Shown: positions 7,385 to 60,880 of the stretch, piece after piece | How positions within the stretch are numbered: position 1 is the stretch's first letter | How the letters are laid out: every line of letters begins with the position of its first letter | NCBI RefSeq assembly: GCF_003590945.1 | Contig: NZ_QYUK01000011.1 | Span: 3,814,909-3,878,908, forward strand | DNA length: 64,000 nucleotides | Reading direction: 5' to 3' | DNA from: Oleomonas cavernae | GTDB taxonomy: Bacteria > Pseudomonadota > Alphaproteobacteria > Zavarziniales > Zavarziniaceae | The notes under the pieces: generated by a model | The model's input: only the letters and a program-made list of their open reading frames with translations | Told to the model about the DNA's origin: nothing | Database searches by the model: none | Position numbers and translations under genes: made by a program

Positions 7385-7430
7385 TTACCTGTCCCCCCTC
7401 GATTCCTGCCCTGCGGCCCGGTGATCCAGT

Positions 7431-8390
7431 TCAGTTCCCGCCCGGCACCAGCTTGACCACCCGGCCGCTGTTGCCGCCGATGAGCCAGCCGTTCGGTCCC
7501 GCGGCGACAATCGCCTGATACCACCCGGTTGCCGCATCGCCCGGCGTGATGGTCGTGAACGACGCCGCGCTATCCGAACCGATCGCCATGCTGCGCACGC
7601 CGGTGATCAGAACCTGGCCGCCGGCCGTCCGGCCCACACCCATGTAGTTGGCCTTGGAGCCGGAGGGCACGATCGCCCAGGTCAGCCCGCCATCAGTCGA
7701 GCGGAGCACCCGGCCATCCTGGCCGACGGCGTAACCGATCCCATTCCCGTCGATCTGGATGTCGAAGAGCGAGGCCTTGCCGGTGTGGACCAGGGTCCAG
7801 CTCTTGCCCCGATCGGTCGAGCGCAGGATGGCTTCGAATTCGCCGGCGATCGTGATCGCGCCGTCGGCCGCCACCGACACGCCGTAGACGTGGGGCTGGA
7901 AGCCCTCGGTATTGGTGCTGGACCAGTCGTATTCGATCGGCGCCCAGGTCTGGCCGGCGTCGGACGAGACGAGGATGGTGCCGAAGGCGCCGACCGCCAC
8001 GGCAAGGCCGGCCGCATTGACATCTACCGCGAACAGGCGGGCGTCGGTGACGCTGGGCAGGCGGGTCCAGGTGGTGCCGGCACGGCGCAGCATCAAGCCG
8101 CGCTGCCCGACCACCAGGGCAATGTTGTTCTTCAGGATGCAGCCCAGCGGCACGGCATCGACCACCGCGCCGGCTTCGGCGGCCCAGGTCACGCCGCCGT
8201 CACCGCTGGAAAAGATCAGGTTGGGGGCACCCACCGCCAGGAGCTTGTTGCCGTCGGCCGCCATGCAGAACAGGCCTTCGTGCAGCGTGCCCTGGTGGAC
8301 GACGTCGAAGCCGACGCCACCGGCGGCATGAGCCGCCGGTGCCAGACCGATGAGGAGCGCCGCGACGGCTGCTCGGATGCTGTTTCTCAT
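7431..8390 (-). CDS. secreted Ycf48-like/BNR-repeat beta-propeller protein
   Basis: 319 residues with a Sec signal peptide (cleavage near AHA-AGG) followed by about six repeats of the form ...SxDxGxTW..., visible as SSGDGGVTW, SSDAGQTW, STDRGKSW and STDGGLTW. This is the Ycf48/photosystem-assembly-type or sialidase-like beta-propeller; in non-phototrophs it is repeatedly seen next to MMPL permeases and DUF1329/DUF1302 proteins. It is probably a periplasmic or surface scaffold of the envelope module, not an enzyme; no catalytic motif is visible. Encoded 24 bp downstream of the second DUF1329 gene. Confidence 0.85.
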   Translation of the reverse strand: MRNSIRAAVAALLIGLAPAAHAAGGVGFDVVHQGTLHEGLFCMAADGNKLLAVGAPNLIFSSGDGGVTWAAEAGAVVDAVPLGCILKNNIALVVGQRGLMLRRAGTTWTRLPSVTDARLFAVDVNAAGLAVAVGAFGTILVSSDAGQTWAPIEYDWSSTNTEGFQPHVYGVSVAADGAITIAGEFEAILRSTDRGKSWTLVHTGKASLFDIQIDGNGIGYAVGQDGRVLRSTDGGLTWAIVPSGSKANYMGVGRTAGGQVLITGVRSMAIGSDSAASFTTITPGDAATGWYQAIVAAGPNGWLIGGNSGRVVKLVPGGN

Positions 8391-8414
8391 TGCCGGATGC
8401 CCCCGCCCAACCGA

Positions 8415-9797
8415 TCAGGCGCTGCCCAGGCGACGGATCGCCTGAATGGTCAGGAACTGCTCGTAGAAATTGCCCTGGTTCCAGCTCGGCTTGTAGCCGC
8501 CGGCCGCTTCCTCGGCCATGTAGAAGCGGCTGCCGCGGTTGGTCTGGATGTCGTAGCACATGCAGGATTGCACCGACCAGACGACCTCGCCGTTACCGTC
8601 CTTCACCGACTTGCCGCCACGCTCGTAACGGCCGTAGGGCGCCTCGACCAGCTTCCACAGGTCGCCGCGGCGATCGTAGGTGTTGCTGACCAGACCCTGC
8701 ATGTTACGCACGTCGACATAGGTGCGGCGCTTGCCGACCGGGGCGCGCGGATAGCCCGTCGGCTCGGAATCGATGACCAGCACTTCCGGCTTAAGCTCGT
8801 ACTCGTACTCGTAGAAGCTGATACCCTTCGGGCCGCCGTGAACCTCGGGTTCCCAGCCCGGCTTGTCGCCGTGCCAGTTCGAACCCGCGTTGCCCAGGTG
8901 CGGCTTGGTATCGACGATCTTGTAGTTGCCCCAGGTCTTCATGGGGTCGCCGGCGTGCCAGGCGTCGGACAGGAACAGGGTGAGGCCGGGCACCAGGGGC
9001 TCGAAGCGCTGGTTGGTCGGGAAGCGGCGCTCGCGCTTGAAGGCGGGCAGATAGCCGAAGAGATCGGGGAACTTGGTCTGGTCGTAGAGCCAGTTCGACA
9101 GGAAGGAGGTGCCACGCACGTCGTTCGGCGAGACGAAGAACACGGTCTGGAACCGCAGCATGTCCTCGAAGCCGTCGAGATAGGGCTTGCTCGGGTTGCT
9201 GGTCAGGCCGCACACGTTCTGCTCCACCCAGCAGAAGTCGTATTTGTAGGCGACATTGCCGTCGGGCGAGATATCGCAGTCGCGCAGCACGTAGAAACCG
9301 GCGTCGTTGCGCCCCCATGACAGGGTCAGGTTGGCATAGACTTCCTCGCCGGACTTGGCATTGGGGAACGGGTTGCCGCCGATCCAGCGCTTGCCGTCCA
9401 GGGTGACCACGTTGCCGCTGCTGTCGAACTTCGCCTTGCCGGCGTTGCGCACCGTCGCTTCGAGATACTTGTTGCTGTTCAGTTTCAACGGATCGGTCGC
9501 GGTCTTCACGATCTTGATCCGGCGGCCCAGTTCCTTGATCTGCTTGAAGGTGATGGGATCGAGCAGATCCTTCACCACGTCGACGTTGCCGGCATCGACG
9601 ATGTCGCCCGTCTTGATCTTGCCCTTGGTATAGGCATCGATCGAGAGCAATTCCTCGGGATAGGCCTTGGCCGTGTCCTGGGCATTGGCGATCAGCGGCC
9701 ACAAGGGCTGGAGCACGCCGGCGGCGACGATCCCCTTGGCGGTGCGTTCCATGAACTGGCGGCGGCTGTAGTTGAAGTCGTATTTCTTGATGTGCAT
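8415..9797 (-). CDS. DUF1329 protein with twin-arginine signal
   Basis: 460-residue DUF1329 (LolB-like fold) protein. The N-terminus carries YSRRQFMERTAKGIVAAGV followed by LIANAQD, a good Tat signal with a plausible Ala-x-Ala cleavage site, so it is probably exported folded. It is paralogous to the 3949-5325 protein over its whole length. ATG at 9797 follows GGGAGGAA. It sits 43 bp behind the MMPL permease, so the two likely share a transcript and work together in moving a hydrophobic compound across the periplasm; this role is inference from genomic context. Confidence 0.88.
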   Translation of the reverse strand: MHIKKYDFNYSRRQFMERTAKGIVAAGVLQPLWPLIANAQDTAKAYPEELLSIDAYTKGKIKTGDIVDAGNVDVVKDLLDPITFKQIKELGRRIKIVKTATDPLKLNSNKYLEATVRNAGKAKFDSSGNVVTLDGKRWIGGNPFPNAKSGEEVYANLTLSWGRNDAGFYVLRDCDISPDGNVAYKYDFCWVEQNVCGLTSNPSKPYLDGFEDMLRFQTVFFVSPNDVRGTSFLSNWLYDQTKFPDLFGYLPAFKRERRFPTNQRFEPLVPGLTLFLSDAWHAGDPMKTWGNYKIVDTKPHLGNAGSNWHGDKPGWEPEVHGGPKGISFYEYEYELKPEVLVIDSEPTGYPRAPVGKRRTYVDVRNMQGLVSNTYDRRGDLWKLVEAPYGRYERGGKSVKDGNGEVVWSVQSCMCYDIQTNRGSRFYMAEEAAGGYKPSWNQGNFYEQFLTIQAIRRLGSA

Positions 9798-9840
9798 GAC
9801 GCTGTTCCTCCCAAAGGATTTTTTGACGCGATACCGAAGG

Positions 9841-12279
9841 TTACTGTGCGGCGACGAGCGTCTCGAGTTCGCGGTCGTCGGTGATGTAGGCGGACAGGTC
9901 CACCCCCTCGCCGACGATGAGATCGTCGCGCTTCATGAAGGCGGGTTTGATCAGCCAGACCAGCAGGGGCACCACGATCAGCGCGATGACCATGTTGATC
10001 AGCATGACCATGACCAGCAGCAGGCCCATGTCGGCCAGGAACTTCAGCTCGGACAGGAAGTACCAGGGCAGGATGCCCAGCAGCATGATCGAGGCGGTGA
10101 AGAAGATCGCCTTGCCGGTGGTGGCGACGGAGGCCAGGATCGCCGCGTCGTACTTCTTGTGGCCCTGGTATTCCTCGCAGATCCGGCTGAGCAGGTAGAT
10201 GCCGTAATCGATGCCGACACCGATGCCGATCGCGGTGATGGGCAGGCTGTTGACGTCGAGGCCGATGCCCATGCCCACCATCACGGTCGACAGGAAGAAG
10301 TTCGACAGATTGACCGGGATCAGCAGCAGCACGCCCGCCAGGATCGACTTGTAGGCATAGGCACAGCACACGAACATGGCGAGGTTCAGCAGGCCGAGGA
10401 TGATCCAGTGATAGTGCTCGACCGCTTCGTTGACGGATTGCTGCAGGGCGATGGTGCCGGTGGCCAGGCGGACCCGGAATTCGGGATGGTCGGCGCCGAC
10501 GAAATCCACCGCCGCCTGGGCCTGGGCGATCGCCTGGTCGACCGTTTCCTGGGTGTTGTCCTTGTACCACAGCGAGACGGTGGCGTTCTGCTGCTCGAAG
10601 TCGGTTACATGCATGAAGGCCTTGGGGCTGGTGCCGAACATCAGGGCACCGACCGCCGCCCCGACCGAGGCATCGTCGCCGTCGAGCGGCATCCACTTGG
10701 GATTGCCGCCGGCGAACAGGCGATTGGCCTCGGGCAGGTAGTCGGCAAAGGACAGGGTGGCGACGGGCGGGACCGGCTGCTTCTCGAGGAAATACTCGAT
10801 CCGGGCCATGGTCTCGATCGTATGGGCCTGGCGGGCGACACGGCTGGGATTGGTCGGGTTCTTGGCCTCGAGCACGATTTCCAGCGTATTGAGGCCGGGG
10901 AAGTGATCGTTGATCTGGGCGACGGCGCCGTTGAATTCCGATTTCGGGAACAGCAGGTTGCTGCCCTCGACCGGGTTGCCGATCTTCAGTTGGGTGGTCT
11001 GCCAGACGCAGAAAACCGCGACGAGGCCGACCGCGACCGTGGTGAAGCGGGCGCGGGAGCCGTAGGTCCAGGTCGACAGGGTGCGCAGGCCGTTGCGGAT
11101 CTTGACGTGGACGCCCCGGTCGCCGTCACGGCCGGTGATCTTCAGGATGTTCTTGGGGCTGGGCAGCCAGGACAGCAGCAGGGGGCTGAGGAAGATGTTG
11201 GCCGGCACCAGCATGAAGGCCCAGAAGCCGCAGAAAATCGCCAGGCGTTCCATCACCGGAATCGGTGCGACCGCGATCAGGCACAGGCCGACGGCGTCGG
11301 TGACGATGCCCAGCGTGCCCGGCACCATCATGACGCCAAGGGCGATCTCGGCCGACTTCCGGCGATCCTTCACATGGTGCAGGATCTCGCAATAGCGTTC
11401 GATGAACTGGGCGCAATGGCTGAACGAGCGGGCGACGTGCAGCAGCGGCACGACCATGATCAAGGGCTCGATCGGCAGGTTCAGCCAGCCGACGAAACCA
11501 AAGCCCCAGACCGCGGTCACCGCGCTGGCGGTCAGCGGCACGACGACGCCGATGACGTTGCGCATGTAGACGACCAGCGACAGCACGAGTGCCGCCAGCG
11601 TGATGCCGAAGATCCACAGCATCTGGTGCTGGTAGTGATAGACCCAGCCGGTCAGGGCCGGCTGGCCCGCCATGTAGACGTCGTGATCGGCGTCGCGCTC
11701 GCGCTCGACCAGGCCCTGCATGTAGGCGAAGGTCTCGCCGTAGTCGAGCAGGCGCTCGATGAAGGTGACCTGGATGATGGTCGAGGTTTCATCGGCCGAA
11801 ATCAGGAAGGCGCGCGCGCCGATCGACATTTCCACCCGGCGGCGGAATTCGTCGACATCCGCCTGGTTGGCCGGCGGATGGTCGCCCATGATCGGCTGGG
11901 CATCGATGCCGTCGGGCACCGCCTCGGCATAGCGTGCCTTCTCGGTGCTGATCGAGACCACCTGGTCGTGATCGACCGCGGGCGCCAGATCGGCCTCGCG
12001 CGTCATGTTCCAGATCTTCTGCAGGGTCTCGACGTTGTAGATCGTCCCTTCCTTGCGCTTGACCATGATGCTGATGGTCAGCGGGTTGCCGAAGTTGGGA
12101 TGATCCTTGAACGTCTGGACGTAAGGATGGTCCGCCGGCAGCAGGTCCGAGAAGACCGTGCGCAAGTCGACGTTGCGCAGGCCCAGGCCCAGGAAGACCG
12201 TGATGCCGATCATCACCGCCAACGAGAGGATCCGGTTGCGCATGACGAATTGCGCGATGCGAAAGGGCGTGTTTTGCAC
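9841..12279 (-). CDS. RND/MMPL-family transporter (HAE3-like)
   Basis: 812-residue inner-membrane permease with the two-fold RND layout: N-terminal membrane helix (SLAVMIGITVFLGLGL), a large periplasmic loop, five clustered helices around residues 220-390, a second loop, then five more helices including GIGVGIDYGIYL, where the Asp is the usual proton-relay candidate. Length and the lack of a separate adaptor fit the hydrophobe/amphiphile group 3 (MMPL/hopanoid-type) permeases rather than drug-efflux RND pumps. First gene of the minus-strand module MMPL, DUF1329, Ycf48-like, DUF1302, DUF1329. Direction of transport cannot be read from the sequence. Confidence 0.9.
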   Translation of the reverse strand: MQNTPFRIAQFVMRNRILSLAVMIGITVFLGLGLRNVDLRTVFSDLLPADHPYVQTFKDHPNFGNPLTISIMVKRKEGTIYNVETLQKIWNMTREADLAPAVDHDQVVSISTEKARYAEAVPDGIDAQPIMGDHPPANQADVDEFRRRVEMSIGARAFLISADETSTIIQVTFIERLLDYGETFAYMQGLVERERDADHDVYMAGQPALTGWVYHYQHQMLWIFGITLAALVLSLVVYMRNVIGVVVPLTASAVTAVWGFGFVGWLNLPIEPLIMVVPLLHVARSFSHCAQFIERYCEILHHVKDRRKSAEIALGVMMVPGTLGIVTDAVGLCLIAVAPIPVMERLAIFCGFWAFMLVPANIFLSPLLLSWLPSPKNILKITGRDGDRGVHVKIRNGLRTLSTWTYGSRARFTTVAVGLVAVFCVWQTTQLKIGNPVEGSNLLFPKSEFNGAVAQINDHFPGLNTLEIVLEAKNPTNPSRVARQAHTIETMARIEYFLEKQPVPPVATLSFADYLPEANRLFAGGNPKWMPLDGDDASVGAAVGALMFGTSPKAFMHVTDFEQQNATVSLWYKDNTQETVDQAIAQAQAAVDFVGADHPEFRVRLATGTIALQQSVNEAVEHYHWIILGLLNLAMFVCCAYAYKSILAGVLLLIPVNLSNFFLSTVMVGMGIGLDVNSLPITAIGIGVGIDYGIYLLSRICEEYQGHKKYDAAILASVATTGKAIFFTASIMLLGILPWYFLSELKFLADMGLLLVMVMLINMVIALIVVPLLVWLIKPAFMKRDDLIVGEGVDLSAYITDDRELETLVAAQ

Positions 12280-21391: not shown

Positions 21392-22384
21392 GTGAACATC
21401 GACCTGCATGCCCATTTCGTGCCCCAGGCCTTTCCCGACGGGCGCGGGCGCTCGGCCCTGTGGCCGGCGATCGAGCACCGGCCGGACGGCCGGGCCGCGA
21501 TCGTCATCGGCGGCCGGCCCTTTCGCGTCCTCGACGCCTGCAACTGGGATAGTGCCGCGCGGCTGGCCGACCTGGCGGCGGAAGGCGTGGACCGGCAAGT
21601 CATCTCCCCCATGCCGGAACTGCTCTCCCACTGGTTCGACGCGGCGGAGGCCGACCTGCTGTCCCGCCACATGAACGAGGCCCTTGCGGCACTCGTCGCC
21701 ACCCAGCCTGACCGCTACCTCGGCCTGGGCATGGTTCCGGTGCAGGATCCCGAACTGGCCGCGCGGCGCCTGGAAGAGGTGAAGACGCTGGGGCTGCGCG
21801 GGGTCGAAATCGGCTCGCACATCAATGGCCTGCCGCTGGGCGACGCCTCGCTCGACCCGTTCTATGCGGCGGCCCAGGCCCTGGACCTCGCCATCATGGT
21901 GCACCCGCTGCACCCGGTCGGGCGGGAGCGCCTGGGCGGCAATCCGGCCCTGGCCGCGGCGGCTGCCTTCCCGCTGGACACGGCCCTGGCCGGCGCCTCG
22001 CTGCTGGCGGCCGGCATTCCCGACAAGTATCCCCGCCTGCGCATCCTGCTGTGCCATGGCGGCGGGGCCTTGCCGTGGATCCTGCCGCGGCTGGACCAGG
22101 TCTGGTCGCTGGGCGGCAGCCTGGGCGCGCTGTTCCCGCGCAAGCCCAGCGAAATGGCCAGGAAATTCTACTACGACACGGTGCTCTACGATGCGCCGTC
22201 GCTGCGCTTCCTGGCGCAGACGGTGGGCATCGACCGGATCGCGGTCGGCTCCGACTATCCTTTTGTCATCCAGCAGGGCCGGCCGGTGGACTTCGCCCTG
22301 GGCGCCCTGCACTGCCCCGGCGAGCAATTGGCGCGGAACGCCCTCGATTTCCTCGGGCTTGGCCATCAGTGCCCGGACCAATAG
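21392..22384 (+). CDS. ACMSD-family amidohydrolase/decarboxylase
   Basis: Metal-dependent amidohydrolase_2 family protein (about 330 residues) of the group that includes aminocarboxymuconate-semialdehyde decarboxylase and 5-carboxyvanillate decarboxylase. Metal-binding residues: DLHAHF near the N-terminus, MVHPLHP in the middle, CHGGGALPW and GSDYPF towards the C-terminus. It is divergent from the dioxygenase operon and shares its operator, so it likely acts in the same pathway; decarboxylation of the 3-carboxy ring-fission product before the hydrolase step would fit. Start is a GTG at 21392 nine bases after GGGAGGA; TTG at 21386 is an alternative. Its end overlaps the convergent small-subunit gene by 19 bp. 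Confidence 0.85.
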   Translation: MNIDLHAHFVPQAFPDGRGRSALWPAIEHRPDGRAAIVIGGRPFRVLDACNWDSAARLADLAAEGVDRQVISPMPELLSHWFDAAEADLLSRHMNEALAALVATQPDRYLGLGMVPVQDPELAARRLEEVKTLGLRGVEIGSHINGLPLGDASLDPFYAAAQALDLAIMVHPLHPVGRERLGGNPALAAAAAFPLDTALAGASLLAAGIPDKYPRLRILLCHGGGALPWILPRLDQVWSLGGSLGALFPRKPSEMARKFYYDTVLYDAPSLRFLAQTVGIDRIAVGSDYPFVIQQGRPVDFALGALHCPGEQLARNALDFLGLGHQCPDQ

Positions 22385-22638
22385 GCCGCCAGGATGAGCG
22401 TGGTTACAACGCCGATCCAGGCCTCGAACACGATCCGCCAGGGCAGAACCCGGCGCCCCAGTTCCATGAAGTGGACGAACACCAGGCGGATCTTCAGCGC
22501 CGCGATCAGCACCACGGCGGTGGCGGCATAGGGCGCGGCAAGGCTTCCCATATCCTCGGCCACCAGCCAGCTCGACAGCGTCGCCCCCAGCAGGATCGCC
22601 CAGATGCCGATGGCCGGGGGCAGGGTCAGGCCACGCAT
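22366..22638 (-). CDS. NorF/cytochrome-oxidase subunit IV-like small membrane protein (cassette 1)
   Basis: 90-residue protein with three hydrophobic segments. Between the second and third is ALKIRLVFVHFMELGRRVLPWR, a version of the K-x-R-x-(I/V)-x2-x-FM(E/D)-x-R motif shared by all three small proteins of this type in the window and typical of prokaryotic subunit IV/NorF proteins. ATG at 22638 overlaps the stop of the upstream subunit III-like gene. No catalytic role is expected; it should pair with that subunit III-like protein. Confidence 0.82.
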   Translation of the reverse strand: MRGLTLPPAIGIWAILLGATLSSWLVAEDMGSLAAPYAATAVVLIAALKIRLVFVHFMELGRRVLPWRIVFEAWIGVVTTLILAAYWSGH

Positions 22639-23234
22639 CACGCCCTCAACAGATAGAGCAGCGGGAACAGCATCAGCCACAGCAGATCGACCATGTGCCA
22701 ATAGCACGCCGTGCTTTCGACCCAGATGAGATTGCCGGGCCCCGCCGGCCGGCCCCGGACCTTGAAGAAGACCAGGGCAAGGACCGCCATGCCGACCAGG
22801 TAGTGCAGGAAGTGAACCCCGGTGAAGACGAAATAATACATGAAGAAATCATTGGTCAGCATCGAGATGCCGCCCCGAATCTTCTCCACATATTCCGTCA
22901 TCTTCAGGACGCCGAAGCCCGATCCGGCGGCGAAGGACAGCACAAGGTAGCGCTGCAACCGGCCCGCCCGGCCCTCGCGAGCGGCCTCGACCGCGCCGAC
23001 CATGAACCAGGAACTGGTCAGCAGGAAGAAGGTGTTCAGCAGGCCGGTCCAGGGATCGAGCAGCAGCCTGGACTGTTCGAATAGGGTAACCGCCTGCGCC
23101 CGTTCGAAGATGAAGATCAGGAAGAACAGGCCGAACATGAAGATGTCGGCGCTCAGGAACATCCAGATCCCGGGATCGCCCGGGGGCGCCGCCGCCCCTT
23201 TTTGATGAGGCGACGGCGCGGCGTGGCTGGTCAT
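22638..23234 (-). CDS. NorE/cytochrome-oxidase subunit III-like protein (cassette 1)
   Basis: 198-residue five-helix membrane protein of the CoxC/NorE family. Conserved blocks: PGDPGIWMFLSADIFMFG, LLNTFFLLTSSWFMV, NDFFMYYFVFTGVHFLHYLVGM and CYWHMVDLLWLMLFPLLYLLR. No gene for a heme-copper oxidase subunit I or II or for NorB/NorC is in the window, so it is not part of a visible oxidase operon. ATG at 23234 overlaps the upstream gene's stop by 4 nt. Family assignment is firm; function here is unknown. Confidence 0.88.
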   Translation of the reverse strand: MTSHAAPSPHQKGAAAPPGDPGIWMFLSADIFMFGLFFLIFIFERAQAVTLFEQSRLLLDPWTGLLNTFFLLTSSWFMVGAVEAAREGRAGRLQRYLVLSFAAGSGFGVLKMTEYVEKIRGGISMLTNDFFMYYFVFTGVHFLHYLVGMAVLALVFFKVRGRPAGPGNLIWVESTACYWHMVDLLWLMLFPLLYLLRA

Positions 23235-23992
23235 TCGGCGGCTTGCGGCAGCACCACCCCGGCGGGCGGCCGGCCGGCCGCGTGCCGTTCCAGTTTCTCG
23301 GCTTCCAGGCGCTTGATGGCCGCCAGGATGTAGAAGGTCAAGGTCGGGCACCAGACGAACCAGACCGAGAATTCGATCCAGAAGTTGAGCAGGCCGGCCC
23401 GCTCGAACGGCCCGCTCTTGAAGAACGGCATCAGGCATTCGGCCGCGAAGCTGACGCCGACCCAGATGCCGTACCAGGCGAGCCAGCGCGGGATGAGCGG
23501 GTGCTCCCGCTTGTCCGACAGGAAGGCGACGCCCAGCGCCAGCATCTGCAGGGTGGTGACCGAGTAACCAAGGTCGATCAGCAGCCACGACCAGTCGTAG
23601 AGCAGTTGCAGCACCGGATCGCTCAGCGCTTCGGGGCGATAGGCCCCGGCCAGCCAGCCCGAACAGGAGACCAGGATCGGCACCACCGTCAGGCCGGCGC
23701 CCCACAGCGCCAGGGTCGAGAGGATGTTGCTCTCGCCCTCGACCCGTTCCACCACCTTGGCGATGGCCAGGCCCCAGACCATGTAGAGCACGGCAAAGGT
23801 CATGGCGATGACCATGCCGAGGCGCACGGTATTGGCGTTTTCGCGGAAGTAATGCCCGATGTCTTCCGCGGGCAAGGCGGCCGAAAACGGCGGAAGGTTG
23901 AACCCCATCAGCCCCCAGAAGCCGATGAACACCGCCATGAACAGCGGCCCCGCCCAGGCACAAAGCCGCCAGTACTTGAATTCGTCCAGCAT
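23231..23992 (-). CDS. conserved multi-pass membrane protein of the NorE/NorF-like cassette (cassette 1)
   Basis: 253 residues with about seven hydrophobic segments and no recognised domain. Two paralogues in the window (48614-49360 and 57935-58678) share FRPEA-like, PRW(L/V/M)...W and the signature FKSGPF/FKTGPFAxDG(L/M)xSFW. No Cys pairs, heme-binding CxxCH or Fe-S motif is visible. It is always the first gene of the cassette, directly upstream of and overlapping the subunit III-like gene, so it is probably a third subunit of the same membrane complex. Confidence 0.75.
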   Translation of the reverse strand: MLDEFKYWRLCAWAGPLFMAVFIGFWGLMGFNLPPFSAALPAEDIGHYFRENANTVRLGMVIAMTFAVLYMVWGLAIAKVVERVEGESNILSTLALWGAGLTVVPILVSCSGWLAGAYRPEALSDPVLQLLYDWSWLLIDLGYSVTTLQMLALGVAFLSDKREHPLIPRWLAWYGIWVGVSFAAECLMPFFKSGPFERAGLLNFWIEFSVWFVWCPTLTFYILAAIKRLEAEKLERHAAGRPPAGVVLPQAAE

Positions 23993-24021: not shown

Positions 24022-25173
24022 TCAGAGGATCAGCACCGGTTTGATCGCCGTGCCGTTCGTGGTCGCATCGAACGCCTCGTTGATCTGGTCGAACGAAAAT
24101 CGCGTGATCAGCCGGTCGAAGGGCAGCCGCCCGTCGAGATGGTACTGGACCAGTTGGGGAATGAAGACTTCCGGATCGCTGTCGCCCTCGACATAGGCCT
24201 TCACGCCCACGCCGCGCACCAGCATGGACAGGATGTTCGCCGGTAGGCTGGCGTCTGGCGGCGGCATGCCGACCAGGCCCAGCATGCCGTTGGGCAGCAG
24301 GGTTTCCAGCGCCGCGCCGATCACCGCCGGGATGCCCGTGGTATCCAGGGCATGGGATACCCCGCCGGGGCCGGCCTTCTTGACCGATGCCGTTACATCG
24401 GCGTCGCCGGTCGGATCGAGGGCGGCCGTCGCCCCCAACTCCAGCGCCAGGGCGCGCCGGCTCGGGTTTGGCTCGACGACGACGATCGCTGCGGCGCCGG
24501 CAATCTTCGCGGCCATGACCGCGCTGAGGCCGACGGCGCCCGCCCCGAAAATCGCCACGGAATCGCCCTGGTGGACCTTCAGCGAATTGAGGATCGAGCC
24601 GGCGCCGGTCTGGATGCCGCAGCCCAGCGGCCCCAGGAGTTCGATCGGCACCGCCTTCGAGACCACGATCGTGTTCTGTTCGCGCGCGATCAGGTGGCTG
24701 GCGAACGAGGACTGGCCGAAGAAGCGGGCGTTGACTGCGTCACCCTTGCGCGACATCGGGGTGGAGCCGTCCGAGACCCGCACGCCGCCGAAGTTCTCGG
24801 CCATGAAATTATAGCAATAGGACGGTGTCGAGCGTGCGCAATTGGGGCAGACGCCGCAGGAATCGAAGGTCAGGACGACATGGTCGCCGGGCCTGACCCG
24901 GGTGACGCCCGCGCCGACGGCCTCGACCACGCCCGAGCCCTCGTGGCCCAGCACGATCGGCAGCGGCACGGGGAAATCCCCCCGGCAGACGACGTCGGTG
25001 TGGCAGACACCGACACCGGCGACTTTCACCAGAACCTCGTCCCGGCGCGGCTGCTGCAGTTGCACGTCCTCAACCACGAAACGGCCGCCTGGCTCGGACA
25101 ATATGGCCGCGCGGGCGGCAACAGCCGTCCGGCCGGCGCGCACGGGATCGAGCAGCGCATCCGCAATCGACAT
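24022..25173 (-). CDS. zinc-dependent aryl/primary alcohol dehydrogenase (MDR family, XylB-like)
   Basis: 383-residue medium-chain alcohol dehydrogenase. Catalytic zinc ligands Cys in GVCHTD, His-Glu in LGHEGSG and Cys in GPLGCGIQTG; structural zinc Cys cluster CGVCPNC...C; NAD(H)-binding GAGAVGLSAV. It resembles benzyl-alcohol and perillyl-type alcohol dehydrogenases. ATG at 25173 follows GAGGGAGGAATAAG. In this setting it would oxidise the alcohol made by the membrane monooxygenase, feeding the aldehyde dehydrogenase at 1.4 kb. Upstream of cassette 1 by 30 bp on the same strand, so the cassette may be co-transcribed with it. Confidence 0.88.
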   Translation of the reverse strand: MSIADALLDPVRAGRTAVAARAAILSEPGGRFVVEDVQLQQPRRDEVLVKVAGVGVCHTDVVCRGDFPVPLPIVLGHEGSGVVEAVGAGVTRVRPGDHVVLTFDSCGVCPNCARSTPSYCYNFMAENFGGVRVSDGSTPMSRKGDAVNARFFGQSSFASHLIAREQNTIVVSKAVPIELLGPLGCGIQTGAGSILNSLKVHQGDSVAIFGAGAVGLSAVMAAKIAGAAAIVVVEPNPSRRALALELGATAALDPTGDADVTASVKKAGPGGVSHALDTTGIPAVIGAALETLLPNGMLGLVGMPPPDASLPANILSMLVRGVGVKAYVEGDSDPEVFIPQLVQYHLDGRLPFDRLITRFSFDQINEAFDATTNGTAIKPVLIL

Positions 25174-47760: not shown

Positions 47761-48030
47761 CTAAACCGCAAGGATGAGCGCCGCCAGGGCCGCGGCGAGC
47801 CCCGCGGTCCAGGCTTCCCCCGCCAGCCGGAACCAGCCGGGCGCACGGCGAATCTCCATGAATTCCATGATCACGAACCGCGCCTTGACCAGGGCCACCA
47901 CGATGACGGCGGTGGCGGCAAGGCGGTGGTCGGCTAGTCCCAGGCCGTGCCCCAGCCCCCACGAAAGCAGCGTGGCCACGACCAGCAACAGCCAGACGAG
48001 CGTGAGGCGGGACCAGAGCAATTCACGCAT
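47761..48030 (-). CDS. NorF/subunit IV-like small membrane protein (cassette 2)
   Basis: 89 residues, three hydrophobic segments, with ALVKARFVIMEFMEIRRAPGWFR between the second and third, the motif shared with the small proteins at 22366 and 56971. ATG at 48030, 2 bp after the subunit III-like stop. Function unknown beyond family. Confidence 0.8.
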   Translation of the reverse strand: MRELLWSRLTLVWLLLVVATLLSWGLGHGLGLADHRLAATAVIVVALVKARFVIMEFMEIRRAPGWFRLAGEAWTAGLAAALAALILAV

Positions 48031-48032
48031 GC

Positions 48033-48614
48033 TCACGCCGCCAGATAGAGCAAGGCGAACAGCACGATCCACAGCAGGTCCACCAGGTGCCAGAAGCTGG
48101 CGCCGGTTTCCAGATGCTGCACGTTCACCGCTTCGATCGGCCGCGAGCGTGTGTAACCGATCAGTGCCCAAAGCACAGCCATGCCGATCAGCACATGGAT
48201 CATGTGAATGCCGGTATAGACGAAATAGAACATGAAGAAATCGTCGGTCGTCGGCGTGATCCCGGCAGAGACCTTCGCGGCATATTCGAAGTACTTCACC
48301 ACCCCGAACCCCGCACCGCAGGACAGGGCGACCCCGAAGCAGAATTGCGGCACCCCTGCCATGCGCCGGCGCGCCGCTTCCACCCCGCTGGCGACGAACC
48401 AGGAACTGGTCAGCATCAGCAGGGTGTTGAGCAGGCCCAGAAGCTGATTGAGGTGCCCGCGCCCCGCGCCGAACAGGACGGGGTCGGCGGCGCGGTAGTC
48501 GAGGAAGGTGACGAACAGGACCGAGAACAGCACGATATCGCCGCCGATGAACAGCCATATCCCCGGTTCCCCGGGGATATGGGCAGCCGCGGCCTGCATC
48601 CGCCCCCTGGGCAT
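48033..48614 (-). CDS. NorE/cytochrome-oxidase subunit III-like protein (cassette 2)
   Basis: 193-residue five-helix protein: PGEPGIWLFIGGDIVLFS, LLNTLLMLTSSWFVASGVEAARR, DDFFMFYFVYTGIHMIHVLIGM and FWHLVDLLWIVLFALLYL. Start ATG at 48614 overlaps the upstream stop as TGATG. It has no oxidase catalytic partner nearby. Closest in arrangement to cassettes 1 and 3. Confidence 0.87.
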   Translation of the reverse strand: MPRGRMQAAAAHIPGEPGIWLFIGGDIVLFSVLFVTFLDYRAADPVLFGAGRGHLNQLLGLLNTLLMLTSSWFVASGVEAARRRMAGVPQFCFGVALSCGAGFGVVKYFEYAAKVSAGITPTTDDFFMFYFVYTGIHMIHVLIGMAVLWALIGYTRSRPIEAVNVQHLETGASFWHLVDLLWIVLFALLYLAA

Positions 48615-49360
48615 CACGCCCGCTGGGCTTCCATGGCCAGCCGCGGGGCGGCGGCGGCCCGCTTGTCGGCGGCAATCACCTTTAGGGTCGCCGCGCTCAT
48701 GACCAGTATCCAGCCGAAGAACACGATGAACACGAACCAGAACGAGATCAGGCCGTCATAGGCGAAAGGGCCGGTCTTGAAAAATTCGATCAGCCCGGCG
48801 GGCACGATCAGGACGGCGCACCACAGATTGAAAAAGGCGACCCAGCGCGGAAAGACGGTGGGAACATTGTGGTCACGGAAGATCGCCACCGCGATGAAGA
48901 TCATGAAGACGGCGAACGGCGGCCAGCTCAGGATGAAAATGAACCAGACCCAATCGTTCATGATCTGCAGAAATTTCGGGTCCATCGCCTCCGGGCGGAA
49001 CGCGAGTGCGGCCCAGGTGATCGGCATCAGCAGGAAGAATACGTAGCCGCCGCCGATGTTGGCAATCGAGGCATAGGTCAGCAAGGGAACGCCACGCTCC
49101 ATGCGGCGCATGAAGAAGACGATCGATATCGCCCAGGTGGACCAGAAGGTGTAGCAGACGCACTGGATCAGCGTGCCGATGCGGATGCCGACCTTGCGGT
49201 CGATGAAGATCTGCGCCAGTTCCTCAGCCGAGAGCGATGGCGACGGCGGTGGGATGAAACCCATCAGCCAGCCCTGGGTCAGGACCAGGGACGCCACCAG
49301 GGCCACACCCGACAGGACGAACGCCTTGGCAACGGTGCCGTCGACGGTCTGCGATTGCAT
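48614..49360 (-). CDS. conserved multi-pass membrane protein (cassette 2)
   Basis: 248 residues, about seven hydrophobic segments; shares AFRPEAMDPKFLQIMNDWVWF, FPRWVAFFNLW and FFKTGPFAYDGLISFW with the proteins at 23231 and 57935. First gene of cassette 2. Operator site D (49396-49409) lies 35-50 bp upstream, so this cassette appears to be under the same control as the CoA-pathway genes. No cofactor-binding motif is visible. Confidence 0.75.
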   Translation of the reverse strand: MQSQTVDGTVAKAFVLSGVALVASLVLTQGWLMGFIPPPSPSLSAEELAQIFIDRKVGIRIGTLIQCVCYTFWSTWAISIVFFMRRMERGVPLLTYASIANIGGGYVFFLLMPITWAALAFRPEAMDPKFLQIMNDWVWFIFILSWPPFAVFMIFIAVAIFRDHNVPTVFPRWVAFFNLWCAVLIVPAGLIEFFKTGPFAYDGLISFWFVFIVFFGWILVMSAATLKVIAADKRAAAAPRLAMEAQRA

Positions 49361-56970: not shown

Positions 56971-57240
56971 TCAGCCGGTGCCGAGCGCGAAGGCCGTGAA
57001 CAGCGTGATCGAGACAAGCAGCAGCCAGCCCTCGACCAGCCCCCTGTACAGCAACGGCGCCCGCCGCAGATCCATGAAATCGAGAATGATCAGCCGCCCC
57101 TTGAGATAGGCAATGCCGAGTGTCCCGGCCCCCAGCGCCGGCCCGGCGAGGCCGTCGACACTCAGCCAGAAGGTCGCGCTGGTCGCCAGCACAAGAAACA
57201 GCCAGGAACGGCTCGCGCGGTCGCGAAACACCCGAAACAT
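56971..57240 (-). CDS. NorF/subunit IV-like small membrane protein (cassette 3)
   Basis: 89 residues with three hydrophobic segments and AYLKGRLIILDFMDLRRAPLLYR, the shared small-subunit motif. ATG at 57240, 4 bp after the subunit III-like stop. Family similarity only. Confidence 0.8.
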   Translation of the reverse strand: MFRVFRDRASRSWLFLVLATSATFWLSVDGLAGPALGAGTLGIAYLKGRLIILDFMDLRRAPLLYRGLVEGWLLLVSITLFTAFALGTG

Positions 57241-57244
57241 CTGC

Positions 57245-57841
57245 CTATCTCAACAGATAGATGAGCGGAAAAAGCACGATCCAGACGAGATCGACCATGT
57301 GCCAATAGGAGGCACCGGCCTCCAGCCCCCGCATGTTCGCTGCGGTATAGCGGCCATTTCCCGCATTCACCGACATGACCAGAAGAATGACGGAACCGCC
57401 CATCACATGAATCAGGTGTATGAACGTGATCGAAAAATAGAACATGAAGAAATTGTTCGACGAAATATCGATGCCGCTGGCGAACTTTGAGGAATATTCA
57501 AAGAACTTCACCACCACAAAGGCACCTGCCAGAGCAAGCGCCGCGACGAGAAGCCGGGACGTTGCCCTCGACGCGTTTCGCCGCGCCGCCGTAACCGCGA
57601 GAGATACCATCCAGGAGCTGGTAAGCAGGATCAGCGTGTTGAGGGCACCCGAACAGATATCGAGCATTTGCTGGGAAGCATTGAACAAGGCAGGTTCGGC
57701 GGCCCGGTTCACGATGTAGGCGACAAAGAACACGCCGAACATGGAGAGTTCGGCGATGATGAAGACCCAGACATCCTTGTCGCCGGGCAGGTAGCTGGCG
57801 CCGGGTTCCGCCCGGCTCGAGGTTGTCGCAATGCCCGTCAT
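57245..57841 (-). CDS. NorE/cytochrome-oxidase subunit III-like protein (cassette 3)
   Basis: 198 residues from the ATG at 57841; an in-frame GTG-type extension upstream is less likely. Blocks: PGDKDVWVFIIAELSMFG, ALNTLILLTSSWMVSLAVTAARR, NNFFMFYFSITFIHLIHVMGG and YWHMVDLVWIVLFPLIYLLR. The gap to the upstream membrane protein (93 bp) is longer than in cassettes 1 and 2, where the genes overlap. Confidence 0.87.
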   Translation of the reverse strand: MTGIATTSSRAEPGASYLPGDKDVWVFIIAELSMFGVFFVAYIVNRAAEPALFNASQQMLDICSGALNTLILLTSSWMVSLAVTAARRNASRATSRLLVAALALAGAFVVVKFFEYSSKFASGIDISSNNFFMFYFSITFIHLIHVMGGSVILLVMSVNAGNGRYTAANMRGLEAGASYWHMVDLVWIVLFPLIYLLR

Positions 57842-57934
57842 CGTGGCCCCTCGATCATCGGTCGGCGAACCTGTCAAGCGAAGGAAGCGAGGCCCTGGCC
57901 CGGGGGAGGTGCCAGGGCCTCGTCGCGCTGAGGC

Positions 57935-58678
57935 TCAGGCGCCGTAGGCCATCGACCCGGCGGGGGCGGCGAGATCCGCCGCGTGCATCCGGCGATGCAC
58001 CTCCCTGATCATGAAATAGCTGGCCGCACTGAACCAGACCAGCCAGCAGGCATAGGGGATGTAGAAACTGAGCATACCATCCCAGGCGAAGGGGCCGGTC
58101 TTGAAATAGCCGGTCAGGCTCGCCGGGATAAAGCTCAGACCGCACCAGATCGTCAGGAAGCACATCCAGCGCGGAAACAGCGGCACCTTGGATCTGTCGG
58201 ACAGGCCGGCCAAGGCCGCCGCCGCCATCTGCAGCGTGGTGCAGGCATATTGCGTTTCGATGCACAGCCAGCCCAGATCGTTGAGCAACTGGAACAGGGC
58301 GGGATCCCGATCCGGCCGGAACAGGGCTGCCACCCAGAAGAAGGCGCTGAACGACACCACCATCACCGTCAGCCCGCCGCCGATCAGTTGCAGGAACGCC
58401 AGCACCGGGTATCGCCCTTCGATTCGGGCCATCTGTGCGCTGAGCAGCGCTGTCCACGGCATGTAGAGGGTGATGACGACCAGGGAAACGACGAAGCCCA
58501 GGCGCATGTCGTCCAGGTTATCCAGATAGCGCGAGGTCAATTGAGCGGTGTCGAACGCCGGGGACGGACCGGGAAAGTTGCCGCCGATGTGCATCCAGAA
58601 AAGGACGAACAGGACGACGAAGGCCGGTCCGCACCAGGCACTGATCAACTGATACTTCAAACTCGTTTTCTCATCCAT
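57935..58678 (-). CDS. conserved multi-pass membrane protein (cassette 3)
   Basis: 247 residues, about seven hydrophobic segments; LFRPDRDPALFQLLNDLGWL, FPRWMCFLTIWCGLSF and YFKTGPFAWDGMLSFY correspond to blocks in the other two copies. Closest to the cassette 1 protein in the YACTTLQMAAAALAGLSD segment. The MarR gene follows upstream on the same strand, 52 bp away. Confidence 0.75.
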   Translation of the reverse strand: MDEKTSLKYQLISAWCGPAFVVLFVLFWMHIGGNFPGPSPAFDTAQLTSRYLDNLDDMRLGFVVSLVVITLYMPWTALLSAQMARIEGRYPVLAFLQLIGGGLTVMVVSFSAFFWVAALFRPDRDPALFQLLNDLGWLCIETQYACTTLQMAAAALAGLSDRSKVPLFPRWMCFLTIWCGLSFIPASLTGYFKTGPFAWDGMLSFYIPYACWLVWFSAASYFMIREVHRRMHAADLAAPAGSMAYGA

Positions 58679-58730: not shown

Positions 58731-59258
58731 TCAGGCCACGCTCTTGAACGGCCGTGCCGACTTGTCGAACGAGACGACCGCCTTGCGCAGAAGCCGGTCC
58801 AGCGTGCCCAGTTCCTCCGGGCTCAGGCCCGAAAACGCGCGTTCGAGCGGCCCGGCCAGGCGCGGCACGGCCCGCTCGGCGGCGTCTCTTCCCGCCGGGG
58901 TGATGGCGACGCTATAACGCCTGGCATCACGCTCCGCCACGGCTCTGACGATCAGGCCTTCGGCCACGAGCGCATCCAGGATGCGGGTCATGTTGCCCCG
59001 GCTGGTCCCCACCAGGTCGCTCAATTCGCTGGGCGAGGCCTCGCCGCTCTCGCTCGCCAGGAGGAGGCAGAGCACATGGAACATGTTCTCGCTCAGTCCC
59101 AGCTTGCGAAAGACCGGCTCGAAATAGTCGCTCATGCCGAAGACGCTGATCCGCATGAGCCGGACCATCACGGTTTGGGTCATGGGCAGGTCCGGCAGCG
59201 CCTCCCTCATCAGCGGGGTGCTGCGTTCGACGGACTGGAGACGATCAATTCCGCGCAT
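58731..59258 (-). CDS. MarR-family transcriptional regulator
   Basis: 175 residues from the ATG at 59258. Winged helix: SPSELSDLVGTSRGNMTRILDALVAEGLIVRAVAERDARRYSVAITPAGR. Located directly upstream of membrane cassette 3, so cassette 3 may be in its operon or under its control. An imperfect operator-like sequence (9 of 14 matches; AAACTTACGTACTATAT at 59320-59336) lies upstream. Different from the BadR-like MarR at 40777. Confidence 0.85.
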   Translation of the reverse strand: MRGIDRLQSVERSTPLMREALPDLPMTQTVMVRLMRISVFGMSDYFEPVFRKLGLSENMFHVLCLLLASESGEASPSELSDLVGTSRGNMTRILDALVAEGLIVRAVAERDARRYSVAITPAGRDAAERAVPRLAGPLERAFSGLSPEELGTLDRLLRKAVVSFDKSARPFKSVA

Positions 59259-59402: not shown

Positions 59403-60320
59403 TCAGCTTGCGATGCCCGTCCACGGCAGGCGATAGCCGGTCTCGTGCAGGCCATAGCCGACCGTGCCGTCGCCGAGGCGGAACTCCATCAGGTGCTCGC
59501 GGACGACGAAGGTATCGACCGGGAACAGCCAGCTAAAAAGTGGCTTGGCCGTCATCTCGAAGCGCCGGCCCAGCTCGTCGACGAAGGCCCAGCGCGCCTC
59601 CTTCACGGCGAGGCCGTCATCGCAAAGCTCAAGCTCGTCCTCGATCGACACCACGCGCCGCCAGGCGCTGCCGTCATGCATCATGCGCATATAGGCGGAC
59701 TGGCCGGCGGTCGAAATCCCTCGGATCCCGGCGAAGGCCATGCCGTTGTCGAACACCGGCCAGGCCAGGCGATAATGATGCAAGGCATCCCAATTGCGGA
59801 TGCCGGCGGCGATATCGCGGAATCCCTTGCCGTTGATCTCGATACGTTGCCCGCGGTGGACCAGGTGGCCCGTAATCGTCGAGGTCCCCTCGAGATGGAT
59901 ATGGGCGACCTCGCGGGCAAAGGAGCCATCCTTGTCCGCCGTCATGGCAATACAATCGGCCAGGGGATGCAGCTCGTCCCAGGCCAGGTCGAAGGCGCAA
60001 TCCGGCGAGGAAAAGCTGATCCGCGTCCGCTTCAGCGGAATCTCGGCATGAATCCGCATGCCGGCAATATCCACCCCGCCTGCCGGGCGCTGCGGCGTAT
60101 AGGGCAGGTTCAGGTTGGTCCGGGCAAAAAGCGGCAGGCCATCCTTGAAGACGATCAGCCAACTGTTCGCCTCCGGCTGGCTTTCGAGAAATCCCAGGCG
60201 GATCAACAGGCCCACGCGGGTTTCCGGGTCATAGGCATTGTAGTAGTAGCTCTGGCCCCAGCGCGGGTTGCCATCGCCGGCCACCAGGCCTTCATAGGTT
60301 TCGTGACTCTGGTTCATCAT
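59403..60320 (-). CDS. conserved hypothetical protein, possibly CrtC/AttH-like lipocalin fold
   Basis: 305 residues, no signal peptide. Rich in beta-strand-like stretches and aromatic residues; segments such as GHLVHRGQRIEINGKGFRD and WDALHHYRLAWPVFDNGMAFAGIRG recall the hydroxyneurosporene-synthase (CrtC)/AttH-type two-lipocalin proteins, which bind or act on isoprenoids. This likeness is weak and from memory. ATG at 60320 overlaps the stop of the upstream gene as ATGA, so it belongs to the operon with the phosphotransferase-like gene and CoA ligase. Confidence 0.6.
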   Translation of the reverse strand: MMNQSHETYEGLVAGDGNPRWGQSYYYNAYDPETRVGLLIRLGFLESQPEANSWLIVFKDGLPLFARTNLNLPYTPQRPAGGVDIAGMRIHAEIPLKRTRISFSSPDCAFDLAWDELHPLADCIAMTADKDGSFAREVAHIHLEGTSTITGHLVHRGQRIEINGKGFRDIAAGIRNWDALHHYRLAWPVFDNGMAFAGIRGISTAGQSAYMRMMHDGSAWRRVVSIEDELELCDDGLAVKEARWAFVDELGRRFEMTAKPLFSWLFPVDTFVVREHLMEFRLGDGTVGYGLHETGYRLPWTGIAS

Positions 60321-60880
60321 GCACCCCTTGCACTCTGCGTCATGTCGGTGGCGAGAAGGTCGGCGATCGGCGGCAAGGCAGCCGGGTCGGGCTCCCACCC
60401 CTGGGGTGCCATGAGGGCGCGGTCCCGGATCAACTGCTCCCGGGACTGGTCGAGTATCGCTGCCCCTATGGCGGCGAAAACCGCCGGCTCGGCTATTTCG
60501 GCCGCCGTGTCGACCAGGCCGGCGACGGTGCGTTTCAGCCGCTGCACCACGTCCAGGAGGTCGGCCGGCTCGAAGGCACAGGCGCGCAGCAAAGTGGCCG
60601 CCTCACCCCGGCATGCGTCCAGCGAGCCCCGCGCGGCGGCGAGCCCGGCACAAGCAGCCGTCGCCTGGTCGAGGCGGTCGGCGCAGACGAGCAAGCGGGC
60701 CAGTTCATCCCGGTCGAAGGCGAATTGAAGCGGAAGCTGATGGGCCATCAGGGCCAGCATGCCGACGACCAGCCGCCCCTGCTCGACGGCCAGGCTGTTG
60801 TCGGGTGCAATGGCGGGGATCACGACATCCTTCATGGCCTTGATCGCGCTCGCGATCTGGACCTCGGGCCTGAGCTGCAT
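60317..60880 (-). CDS. conserved hypothetical protein, alpha-helical
   Basis: 187 residues, not recognised. Largely helical and Ala/Leu rich (DELARLLVCADRLDQATAACAGLAAARG), with no membrane span, signal peptide or metal motif. Start 60880 lies 1 bp after the phosphotransferase-like stop and its end overlaps the 59403-60320 gene, so it is clearly in the same operon. Similar small helical proteins accompany phosphotransferase-like genes in actinobacterial and sphingomonad lipid clusters, which gives no function. Confidence 0.65.
   Translation of the reverse strand: MQLRPEVQIASAIKAMKDVVIPAIAPDNSLAVEQGRLVVGMLALMAHQLPLQFAFDRDELARLLVCADRLDQATAACAGLAAARGSLDACRGEAATLLRACAFEPADLLDVVQRLKRTVAGLVDTAAEIAEPAVFAAIGAAILDQSREQLIRDRALMAPQGWEPDPAALPPIADLLATDMTQSARGA

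What the first reader, a model, noticed from the sequence alone, without database searches (positions are those of the whole stretch)
22366..23992. Orphan NorE/NorF-like membrane cassette, copy 1 of 3
Three overlapping genes encode a 253-aa membrane protein, a CoxC/NorE-type subunit III and a NorF-type small subunit. All three families recur, in the same order and strand relation, at 47761-49360 and 56971-58678, and none has an oxidase subunit I/II or NorB/C gene nearby. Known role: subunit III modulates O2 and proton supply in heme-copper oxidases. Inference: a stand-alone complex that serves the O2-consuming, membrane-bound hydrocarbon oxidation, for example O2 or quinol supply or protection. 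Triplication inside one catabolic island suggests a specific, undescribed function.
Basis: partly seen in the sequence, partly recalled or inferred. Interest (0 to 1): 0.82.

Follow-up and report, generated by a model that had tools for sequence, protein, structure and literature searches.

The report
Oxidase-less membrane trio in hydrocarbon islands
Bacteria that eat terpenes and other oily compounds repeatedly carry a three-gene membrane cassette built from two spare parts of respiratory enzymes plus an unnamed membrane protein; it never comes with the respiratory enzyme itself, and its proteins are made even when growth is oxygen-free, so it probably handles the oily compounds rather than oxygen.

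Summary
Each of three window loci encodes a ~250-aa six-helix membrane protein ('A', no curated family), a COX3/NorE-like protein and a COX4_pro/NorF-like protein; a fourth copy lies 44 kb outside. They are ancient, divergent paralogues under purifying selection, not a recent triplication. A set of 45 non-redundant A-C3-C4 trios was found in Proteobacteria and Actinobacteria. In 26 genomes chosen for having A, COX3 genes split cleanly: 40 near a COX1/NorB gene, 77 beside A, 15 near neither, none near both. So the cassette is a real oxidase-less unit whose C3 groups with true NorE, not respiratory COX3.

The oxygen-supply reading is not supported. By gene order, three trios match 'hypothetical' genes of the Castellaniella defragrans monoterpene island; three of those nine proteins were detected only in anaerobic, nitrate-grown alpha-phellandrene cells (PMC4109377). 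A trio on an Azoarcus plasmid sits among O2-sensitive dehydratase genes. The neighbours held in common are acyl-CoA/alcohol dehydrogenases, flavoproteins and regulators; only about half of the trio loci show an identifiable oxygenase.

Best guess: an inner-membrane accessory complex handling hydrophobic substrates or intermediates. Mechanism unproven.

The parts
23231..23992 (-). copy 1 protein A, 253 aa, six-helix membrane protein of an unnamed family
   Evidence: ORF; Pfam only DUF4386 below cut-off, 26.3 vs 27.6 bits; AlphaFold2 pLDDT 95.5, six long helices; 90% identical to the Zavarzinia aquatilis L061 copy
22638..23234 (-). copy 1 C3, 198 aa, COX3/NorE-like
   Evidence: (PF00510 E 7e-11)
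22366..22638 (-). copy 1 C4, 90 aa, COX4_pro/NorF-like
   Evidence: PF03626 E 2.5e-10
24022..25173 (-). zinc alcohol dehydrogenase 30 bp upstream of copy 1; 56% identical to the gene matching C. defragrans GeoA, which also directly precedes a trio
48614..49360 (-). copy 2 protein A, 248 aa
48033..48617 (-). copy 2 C3, 194 aa (GTG start), COX3/NorE-like
   Evidence: (PF00510 E 3e-10)
47761..48030 (-). copy 2 C4, 89 aa, COX4_pro/NorF-like
   Evidence: PF03626 E 6e-12
57935..58678 (-). copy 3 protein A, 247 aa
   Evidence: 70% identical to the L050 (Betaproteobacteria) copy
57245..57877 (-). copy 3 C3, 210 aa (start uncertain: TTG 57877 or ATG 57841), COX3/NorE-like; grouped with the C3 matching C. 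defragrans CDM25278
   Evidence: (PF00510 E 4e-15)
56971..57240 (-). copy 3 C4, 89 aa, COX4_pro/NorF-like
   Evidence: PF03626 E 5e-11
58731..59258 (-). MarR-type regulator upstream of copy 3, same family as MarR upstream of A at other loci (L053, L054, L057, L062, L085)
59403..60320 (-). DUF7064/DUF7065 protein, recurrent trio neighbour; the gene matching CDM25297 is of the same family
   Evidence: PMC4109377 Table 2
60317..60880 (-). small unnamed protein (no Pfam match), recurrent trio neighbour, beside a phosphotransferase-like gene

Best explanation
The trio is a stand-alone inner-membrane accessory unit, most likely a complex: the NorE/NorF-type module (COX3-like plus COX4_pro-like) joined to an unnamed six-helix protein A. 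Having no oxidase or NO-reductase core, it is not a terminal oxidase. It is deployed with catabolic pathways for hydrophobic substrates (monoterpenes, alkyl-aromatics, probably steroid- or lipid-like compounds). Proposed mechanism: A, with its conserved motif FFKTGPFAWxG on what is probably the periplasmic side, takes up the membrane-dissolved hydrocarbon or its alcohol/aldehyde product, and the COX3-like subunit, whose fold elsewhere offers a lipid-filled cleft to small hydrophobic molecules (own knowledge), forms part of the path toward cytoplasmic dehydrogenases, oxygenases or flavoproteins. Different paralogues would serve different substrates or steps. Shown: genes, order, conservation, absence of a linked oxidase, catabolic setting. 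Shown in the literature once gene order is used to match loci: substrate-dependent presence without O2. Inferred: complex formation, topology, substrate-handling role.
For: Co-inherited unit: 45 non-redundant trios; A-C3 and C3-C4 distances correlate, Mantel r 0.68 and 0.76, no permutation as high (linkage alone could give this). In 26 genomes, 77/77 A-linked COX3 on the same strand as A, A upstream in 70, median gap 132 bp, none near COX1. Catabolic setting: 146 trio neighbours vs 146 genes from arbitrary places, mostly in the same genomes: acyl-CoA dehydrogenase 8 vs 2, SDR 7, Zn-alcohol dehydrogenase 6, TetR 7, AraC 6, DUF7064 4, MarR 3; no family exceeds 2 in the control. O2-independence: three trios match C. 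defragrans CDM25268-70, 25277-79 and 25293-95 (beside GeoA, GeoB and CtmAB); CDM25268, 25279 and 25294 gave peptides only in alpha-phellandrene cells of anaerobic nitrate cultures. Azoarcus trio beside dehydratase/activase genes. A has no conserved His or Cys; its most conserved residues are G194, P195, F196, G200, P34, D160, P168, W170. C3 keeps the COX3 signature residues and an acid at the Glu90-equivalent site in 39/39. A is the most constrained partner.
Against: No biochemical or genetic test of any trio gene was found. The transposon screens in C. defragrans (72 mutants in the first) list no trio gene among the hits I could read (PMC4109377, PMC5876002), so a single trio is not shown to be needed; redundancy is only a possible reason. 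A also occurs without C3/C4, above all in mycobacteria (42 A and 10 A-linked C3; 28 and 8). The fourth own copy has no catabolic neighbours. No complex was predicted. The fold search found nothing significant. A substrate-handling role is inference from neighbours and from knowledge of COX3.
Confidence: 0.4

Rival explanations
1. Respiratory-chain adaptor: the NorEF-like module and A attach to an existing oxidase, NO reductase or quinone-linked dehydrogenase and keep it active when the membrane is loaded with solvent-like substrate.
For: COX3 and NorE are accessory subunits of heme-copper enzymes in known systems (own knowledge; PMC8139620 says norE/norF may be encoded separately and their function is not well defined). 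Every one of 25 genomes searched has COX1-family enzymes to act on. Would explain substrate induction.
Against: No linkage to any such enzyme in 77 cases. Several divergent paralogues per genome, each beside a different catabolic step, fit one shared respiratory target poorly. Respiratory COX1 genes usually carry their own COX3 (40 cases).
Confidence: 0.2
2. A is a membrane-embedded enzyme (isomerase, hydratase or similar) acting on hydrophobic intermediates, with C3/C4 as stabilising subunits.
For: A is the most conserved partner (dN/dS about 0.10-0.15 vs about 0.35-0.4 for C3), has conserved Asp, Arg and Lys near the helix ends, and lies with AveC-like spirocyclase homologues (PF17198) and CtmA-like flavoproteins in Actinobacteria.
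Against: The published C. defragrans limonene route has no obviously missing membrane enzyme step that needs three of them (PMC4109377). No fold match to a known membrane enzyme, which is weak evidence.
Confidence: 0.17
3. Assembly or maturation factor for membrane or redox enzymes of the island, by analogy with Nor accessory proteins.
For: Nor accessory proteins are thought to serve maturation or activity (own knowledge); L104 shows a C3/C4 pair beside norQ-like and VWA (norD-like) genes with no COX1 seen in the 7.5 kb fetched.
Against: Neighbouring enzymes share no cofactor or location (soluble P450, Rieske, AlkB-type, flavoprotein, CoA enzymes). NorQ/NorD are not part of most trio loci.
Confidence: 0.1
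4. One reading: O2 (or quinol) supply to, or protection of, membrane-bound oxygenases.
For: COX3 is linked to O2 access in oxidases (own knowledge). AlkB-type, P450 or Rieske genes lie within about 10 kb of roughly half of the trio loci, and the window has a Rieske dioxygenase and an AlkB-type gene.
Against: Trio proteins detected only in monoterpene cells of anaerobic, nitrate-respiring cultures, on an island whose initial limonene oxidation is O2-independent (PMC4109377); Azoarcus trio among O2-sensitive enzymes.
Confidence: 0.08

Closest known systems
NorE/NorF of cNOR operons (norEFCBQD)
   Same: C3 and C4 are homologous and keep the gene order; C3 groups with nor-cluster NorE, away from CtaE/CyoC
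   Different: No NorB/NorC near the trios and none evident in the own genome; extra gene A in front; catabolic setting; induced by substrate
CyoC/CyoD and CtaE/CtaF (subunits III and IV of oxidases)
   Same: Same families (PF00510, PF03626)
   Different: Separate clade (100/99); no subunit I or II
C. defragrans monoterpene island genes CDM25268-70, 25277-79, 25293-95 (PMC4109377, 'hypothetical protein')
   Same: By gene order these are three trios; copy 3's C3 is in one clade with the CDM25278 match
   Different: Not described as a unit in the papers read; strain DSM 12141 was compared here, not 65Phen itself
AmeABCD monoterpene RND cassette (PMC6394551)
   Same: Same island type; the window holds its likely counterpart (DUF1302, DUF1329, RND at 5504-12279)
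   Different: Envelope-spanning efflux system without COX-like parts
DUF4386 (PF14329)
   Same: Weak profile similarity of A (7 of 73 members, best E 7e-7)
   Different: Copy 1 scores below the curated cut-off (26.3 vs 27.6); function of DUF4386 unknown

Membership tests
NorE/NorF | COX3-family (PF00510) and COX4_pro (PF03626) proteins in tandem | tested here: met
   all three copies over curated cut-offs
NorE/NorF | C3 groups with NorE of nor operons rather than respiratory subunit III | tested here: met
   respiratory clade split at 100/99; nor-linked NorE (L091, L092 and others) on the trio side
NorE/NorF | encoded with or near norCB/norQD | tested here: not met
   0 of 77 A-linked COX3 within 6 kb of a COX1-family gene; no NorB evident in the own genome. 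Filed as NorEF-like, not as NorEF
NorE/NorF | supports NO reduction | not testable with these tools
   needs activity assays
Heme-copper oxidase complex | subunit I with heme and copper ligands | tested here: not met
   A has no conserved His or Cys and no COX1 match
DUF4386 | score over Pfam's gathering cut-off for A | tested here: inconclusive
   copy 1 26.3 vs 27.6 bits, copies 2 and 3 none; 7 of 73 members E<=0.01
Any solved membrane fold (for A) | clear structural match | tested here: inconclusive
   Foldseek none at E<=0.001; VIA best Z 10.7 (Ste2), within the range stated as common for helical bundles

The most novel reading that the evidence does not exclude
The COX3/NorE fold has been repurposed as part of a dedicated inner-membrane conduit for hydrophobic organic substrates: O2 in oxidases, NO in NO reductase, hydrocarbons here, with protein A as the substrate-specific partner.
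Probability: 0.25. Interest if true: 0.85.

Novelty: new variant of a known kind. Interest (0 to 1): 0.64.

Why it matters
How oily substrates cross or leave the inner membrane to reach catabolic enzymes is poorly understood. A conserved, substrate-induced membrane cassette present in aerobic and denitrifying terpene degraders, with its A protein multiplied in mycobacteria, is a testable candidate. It also shows that 'cytochrome c oxidase subunit 3' labels at these loci are misleading, and it gives a setting for NorEF, whose own role is not well defined.

Tried and rejected
Recent in-place triplication: rejected (23-28% identity among A copies, three C3 subclades). Hidden oxidase core nearby: rejected. 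A as a COX1 remnant: VIA lists qNOR (Z 7.6) and yeast COX1 (Z 7.5), but these lie within helical-bundle noise and A has no conserved His. Natural fusions of A, C3 and C4 as evidence of a complex: none in the loci held. Phage carriage of A: no match. Literature for an orphan NorEF or COX3 in hydrocarbon clusters: nothing found in the open-access library, which misses most subscription papers. Solved relatives of A by sequence: none. The related-loci scan is pattern-limited, so its 61 loci are a lower bound.

Full report
What is there. The window lies in a Zavarzinia genome: the Z. aquatilis record (L031/L061, genome G023) has the same trio coordinates as G002, listed as same genus. Three minus-strand trios occur at 22366-23992, 47761-49360 and 56971-58678. 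Gene A encodes 247-253 aa; C3 is a COX3-family protein (PF00510) and C4 a COX4_pro protein (PF03626), all over curated cut-offs. A has at best a sub-threshold DUF4386 match. A fourth trio lies at C11:3922335-3923904 beside helicase-like and ligase-like genes, without catabolic neighbours.

Is it real and conserved. A pattern-limited scan of 84,980 genomes gave 61 loci encoding A; 37 of them also hold a COX3-like gene, nearly always with a COX4-like one. With later loci, 45 non-redundant trios were assembled, from Alpha-, Beta- and Gammaproteobacteria and Actinobacteria. In a sample of 385 genomes of the class, A occurs in only 6, so it is a sporadic accessory trait; 10 of those 11 A loci have a C3 within the 1.5-kb flank. 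dN/dS against Zavarzinia relatives is about 0.10-0.15 (A), 0.35-0.41 (C3) and 0.25-0.53 (C4), so all are under purifying selection.

Is it orphan. In 25 genomes holding A plus the own genome, I compared all COX3, COX1 and A matches. Of 132 COX3 matches, 40 lie within 6 kb of COX1/NorB, 77 lie beside A, 15 beside neither and none beside both. All 77 are on A's strand, with A upstream in 70. The nearest COX1 on the same contig is 12.9 kb away. The genomes were chosen for having A; the split within them is what counts. True NorE genes linked to NorB or NorQ were found in the same genomes (L091, L092, L099, L103, L109; NorC, NorQ named by eye) and serve as references. A maximum-likelihood tree puts all trio C3 proteins with NorE and away from respiratory subunit III (100/99); the three window copies fall into three subclades. 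Trio C3 proteins keep the COX3 signature residues and an acid at the Glu90-equivalent position in 39 of 39 (the equivalence to bovine Glu90 is my reading).

Where it sits. Neighbours of trios are enriched in acyl-CoA dehydrogenases, short-chain and zinc alcohol dehydrogenases, AraC/TetR/MarR regulators and DUF7064 proteins relative to arbitrary regions, mostly of the same genomes (counts small, gene calls heuristic). A zinc alcohol dehydrogenase directly precedes copy 1 (30 bp) and the trios in L054 and L056; the window enzyme is 56% identical to the L056 one. Identifiable oxygenases (AlkB-type, P450, Rieske) occur near roughly half of the loci (limited seeds). In Actinobacteria, A accompanies CtmA-like flavoproteins and AveC-like membrane proteins.

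The Castellaniella link. Gene order in strain DSM 12141 (L056, L087) matches Table 1 of PMC4109377: alcohol dehydrogenase GeoA then A-C3-C4 (CDM25267-70); A-C3-C4 beside GeoB (CDM25277-81); and A-C3-C4 between two MarR genes, next to a thiolase and CtmAB (CDM25289-96). The neighbour matching CDM25297 has the expected 1023-bp length. This is assignment by order, not by accession. In that study CDM25268 (A), CDM25279 (A) and CDM25294 (C3) gave peptides only in alpha-phellandrene-grown cells, from anaerobic 100 mM nitrate fermenter cultures. A CDM25297 mutant did not grow on limonene. CtmG, also induced, matches a divergent COX3-like gene (L087:18527-19102; PF00510 E 7e-5, just under the cut-off). 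On plasmid pAZKH of Azoarcus sp. KH32C the trio lies with 2-hydroxyacyl-CoA dehydratase, its activase and 2-oxoacid:ferredoxin oxidoreductase. These settings do not fit an O2-supply role.

Protein A. AlphaFold2 with 73 sequences gave pLDDT 95.5, pTM 0.89, six long helices. No significant Foldseek match; VIA's best Z of 10.7 is within the range common for helical bundles. The charge pattern suggests both ends inside, which would put the FFKTGPFAWxG and PPxxP motifs outside and D160/PRW inside (inference). No conserved His or Cys argues against a heme or metal site.

Mechanism. I favour a heme-less membrane complex that handles hydrophobic substrates or intermediates, with paralogues for different steps. 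Shown: gene content, order, conservation, lack of a linked oxidase, setting. Published and matched here by gene order: substrate-dependent presence without O2. Inferred: complex formation, topology, substrate role. Main weaknesses: no mutant in a trio gene, A without C3/C4 in mycobacteria, a fourth own copy outside any catabolic cluster, and no complex model.

Verdict. It is a new variant of a known module (NorEF-like) with an unnamed partner.

Noticed in passing
window 1-1109 and genome C11:3814355-3814825: An AlkB/XylM-type monooxygenase gene (FA_desaturase PF00487 E 9e-19) stands next to a 156-aa membrane protein resembling styrene-oxide isomerase by eye (no Pfam match), with an aldehyde dehydrogenase (1439-2869) and a ferredoxin-reductase (2884-3945) beside it: possibly an epoxidation-isomerisation-oxidation route.
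   Followed up: partly
genome C11:3786393-3799655 (outside window): Genes that look like a phenylacetate (paa) cluster and a styrene monooxygenase/isomerase set, judged from sequence only.
   Followed up: no
window 60882-62092: The phosphotransferase-like (APH) gene is split between two reading frames (182 + 226 aa) where relatives have one frame of about 400 aa: frameshift near 61420, real or a sequencing error.
   Followed up: partly
window 5504-12279: Probable AmeABCD-type cassette (DUF1302, repeat protein, DUF1329, RND/MMPL), as in the C. defragrans monoterpene island (PMC6394551).
   Followed up: partly
L037 (Mycobacterium pinniadriaticum) and L051 (Mycolicibacterium vinylchloridicum): Large paralogue expansion of protein A: 42 and 28 matches per genome, most without C3/C4, among CtmA-like flavoprotein and AveC-like genes.
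   Followed up: partly
L087:18527-19102: The gene in the place of CtmG of the limonene dehydrogenase operon encodes a divergent COX3-like protein that has lost several conserved residues.
   Followed up: partly
L104:2347-6920: C3/C4 pair beside norQ-like and VWA (norD-like) genes with an unrelated 246-aa membrane protein and no COX1 seen in the fetched 7.5 kb.
   Followed up: no
L106 and L107: C3/C4 pairs without A but beside CtmA-like flavoprotein genes; in L107 also a different membrane protein family (M306), suggesting the C3/C4 module takes other partners.
   Followed up: partly
L154 (Sphingobium amiense plasmid pSAMIE_4): A trio on a 55-kb plasmid surrounded by transposases, with an acyl-CoA dehydrogenase gene apparently cut by a Tn3-family element.
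   Followed up: no
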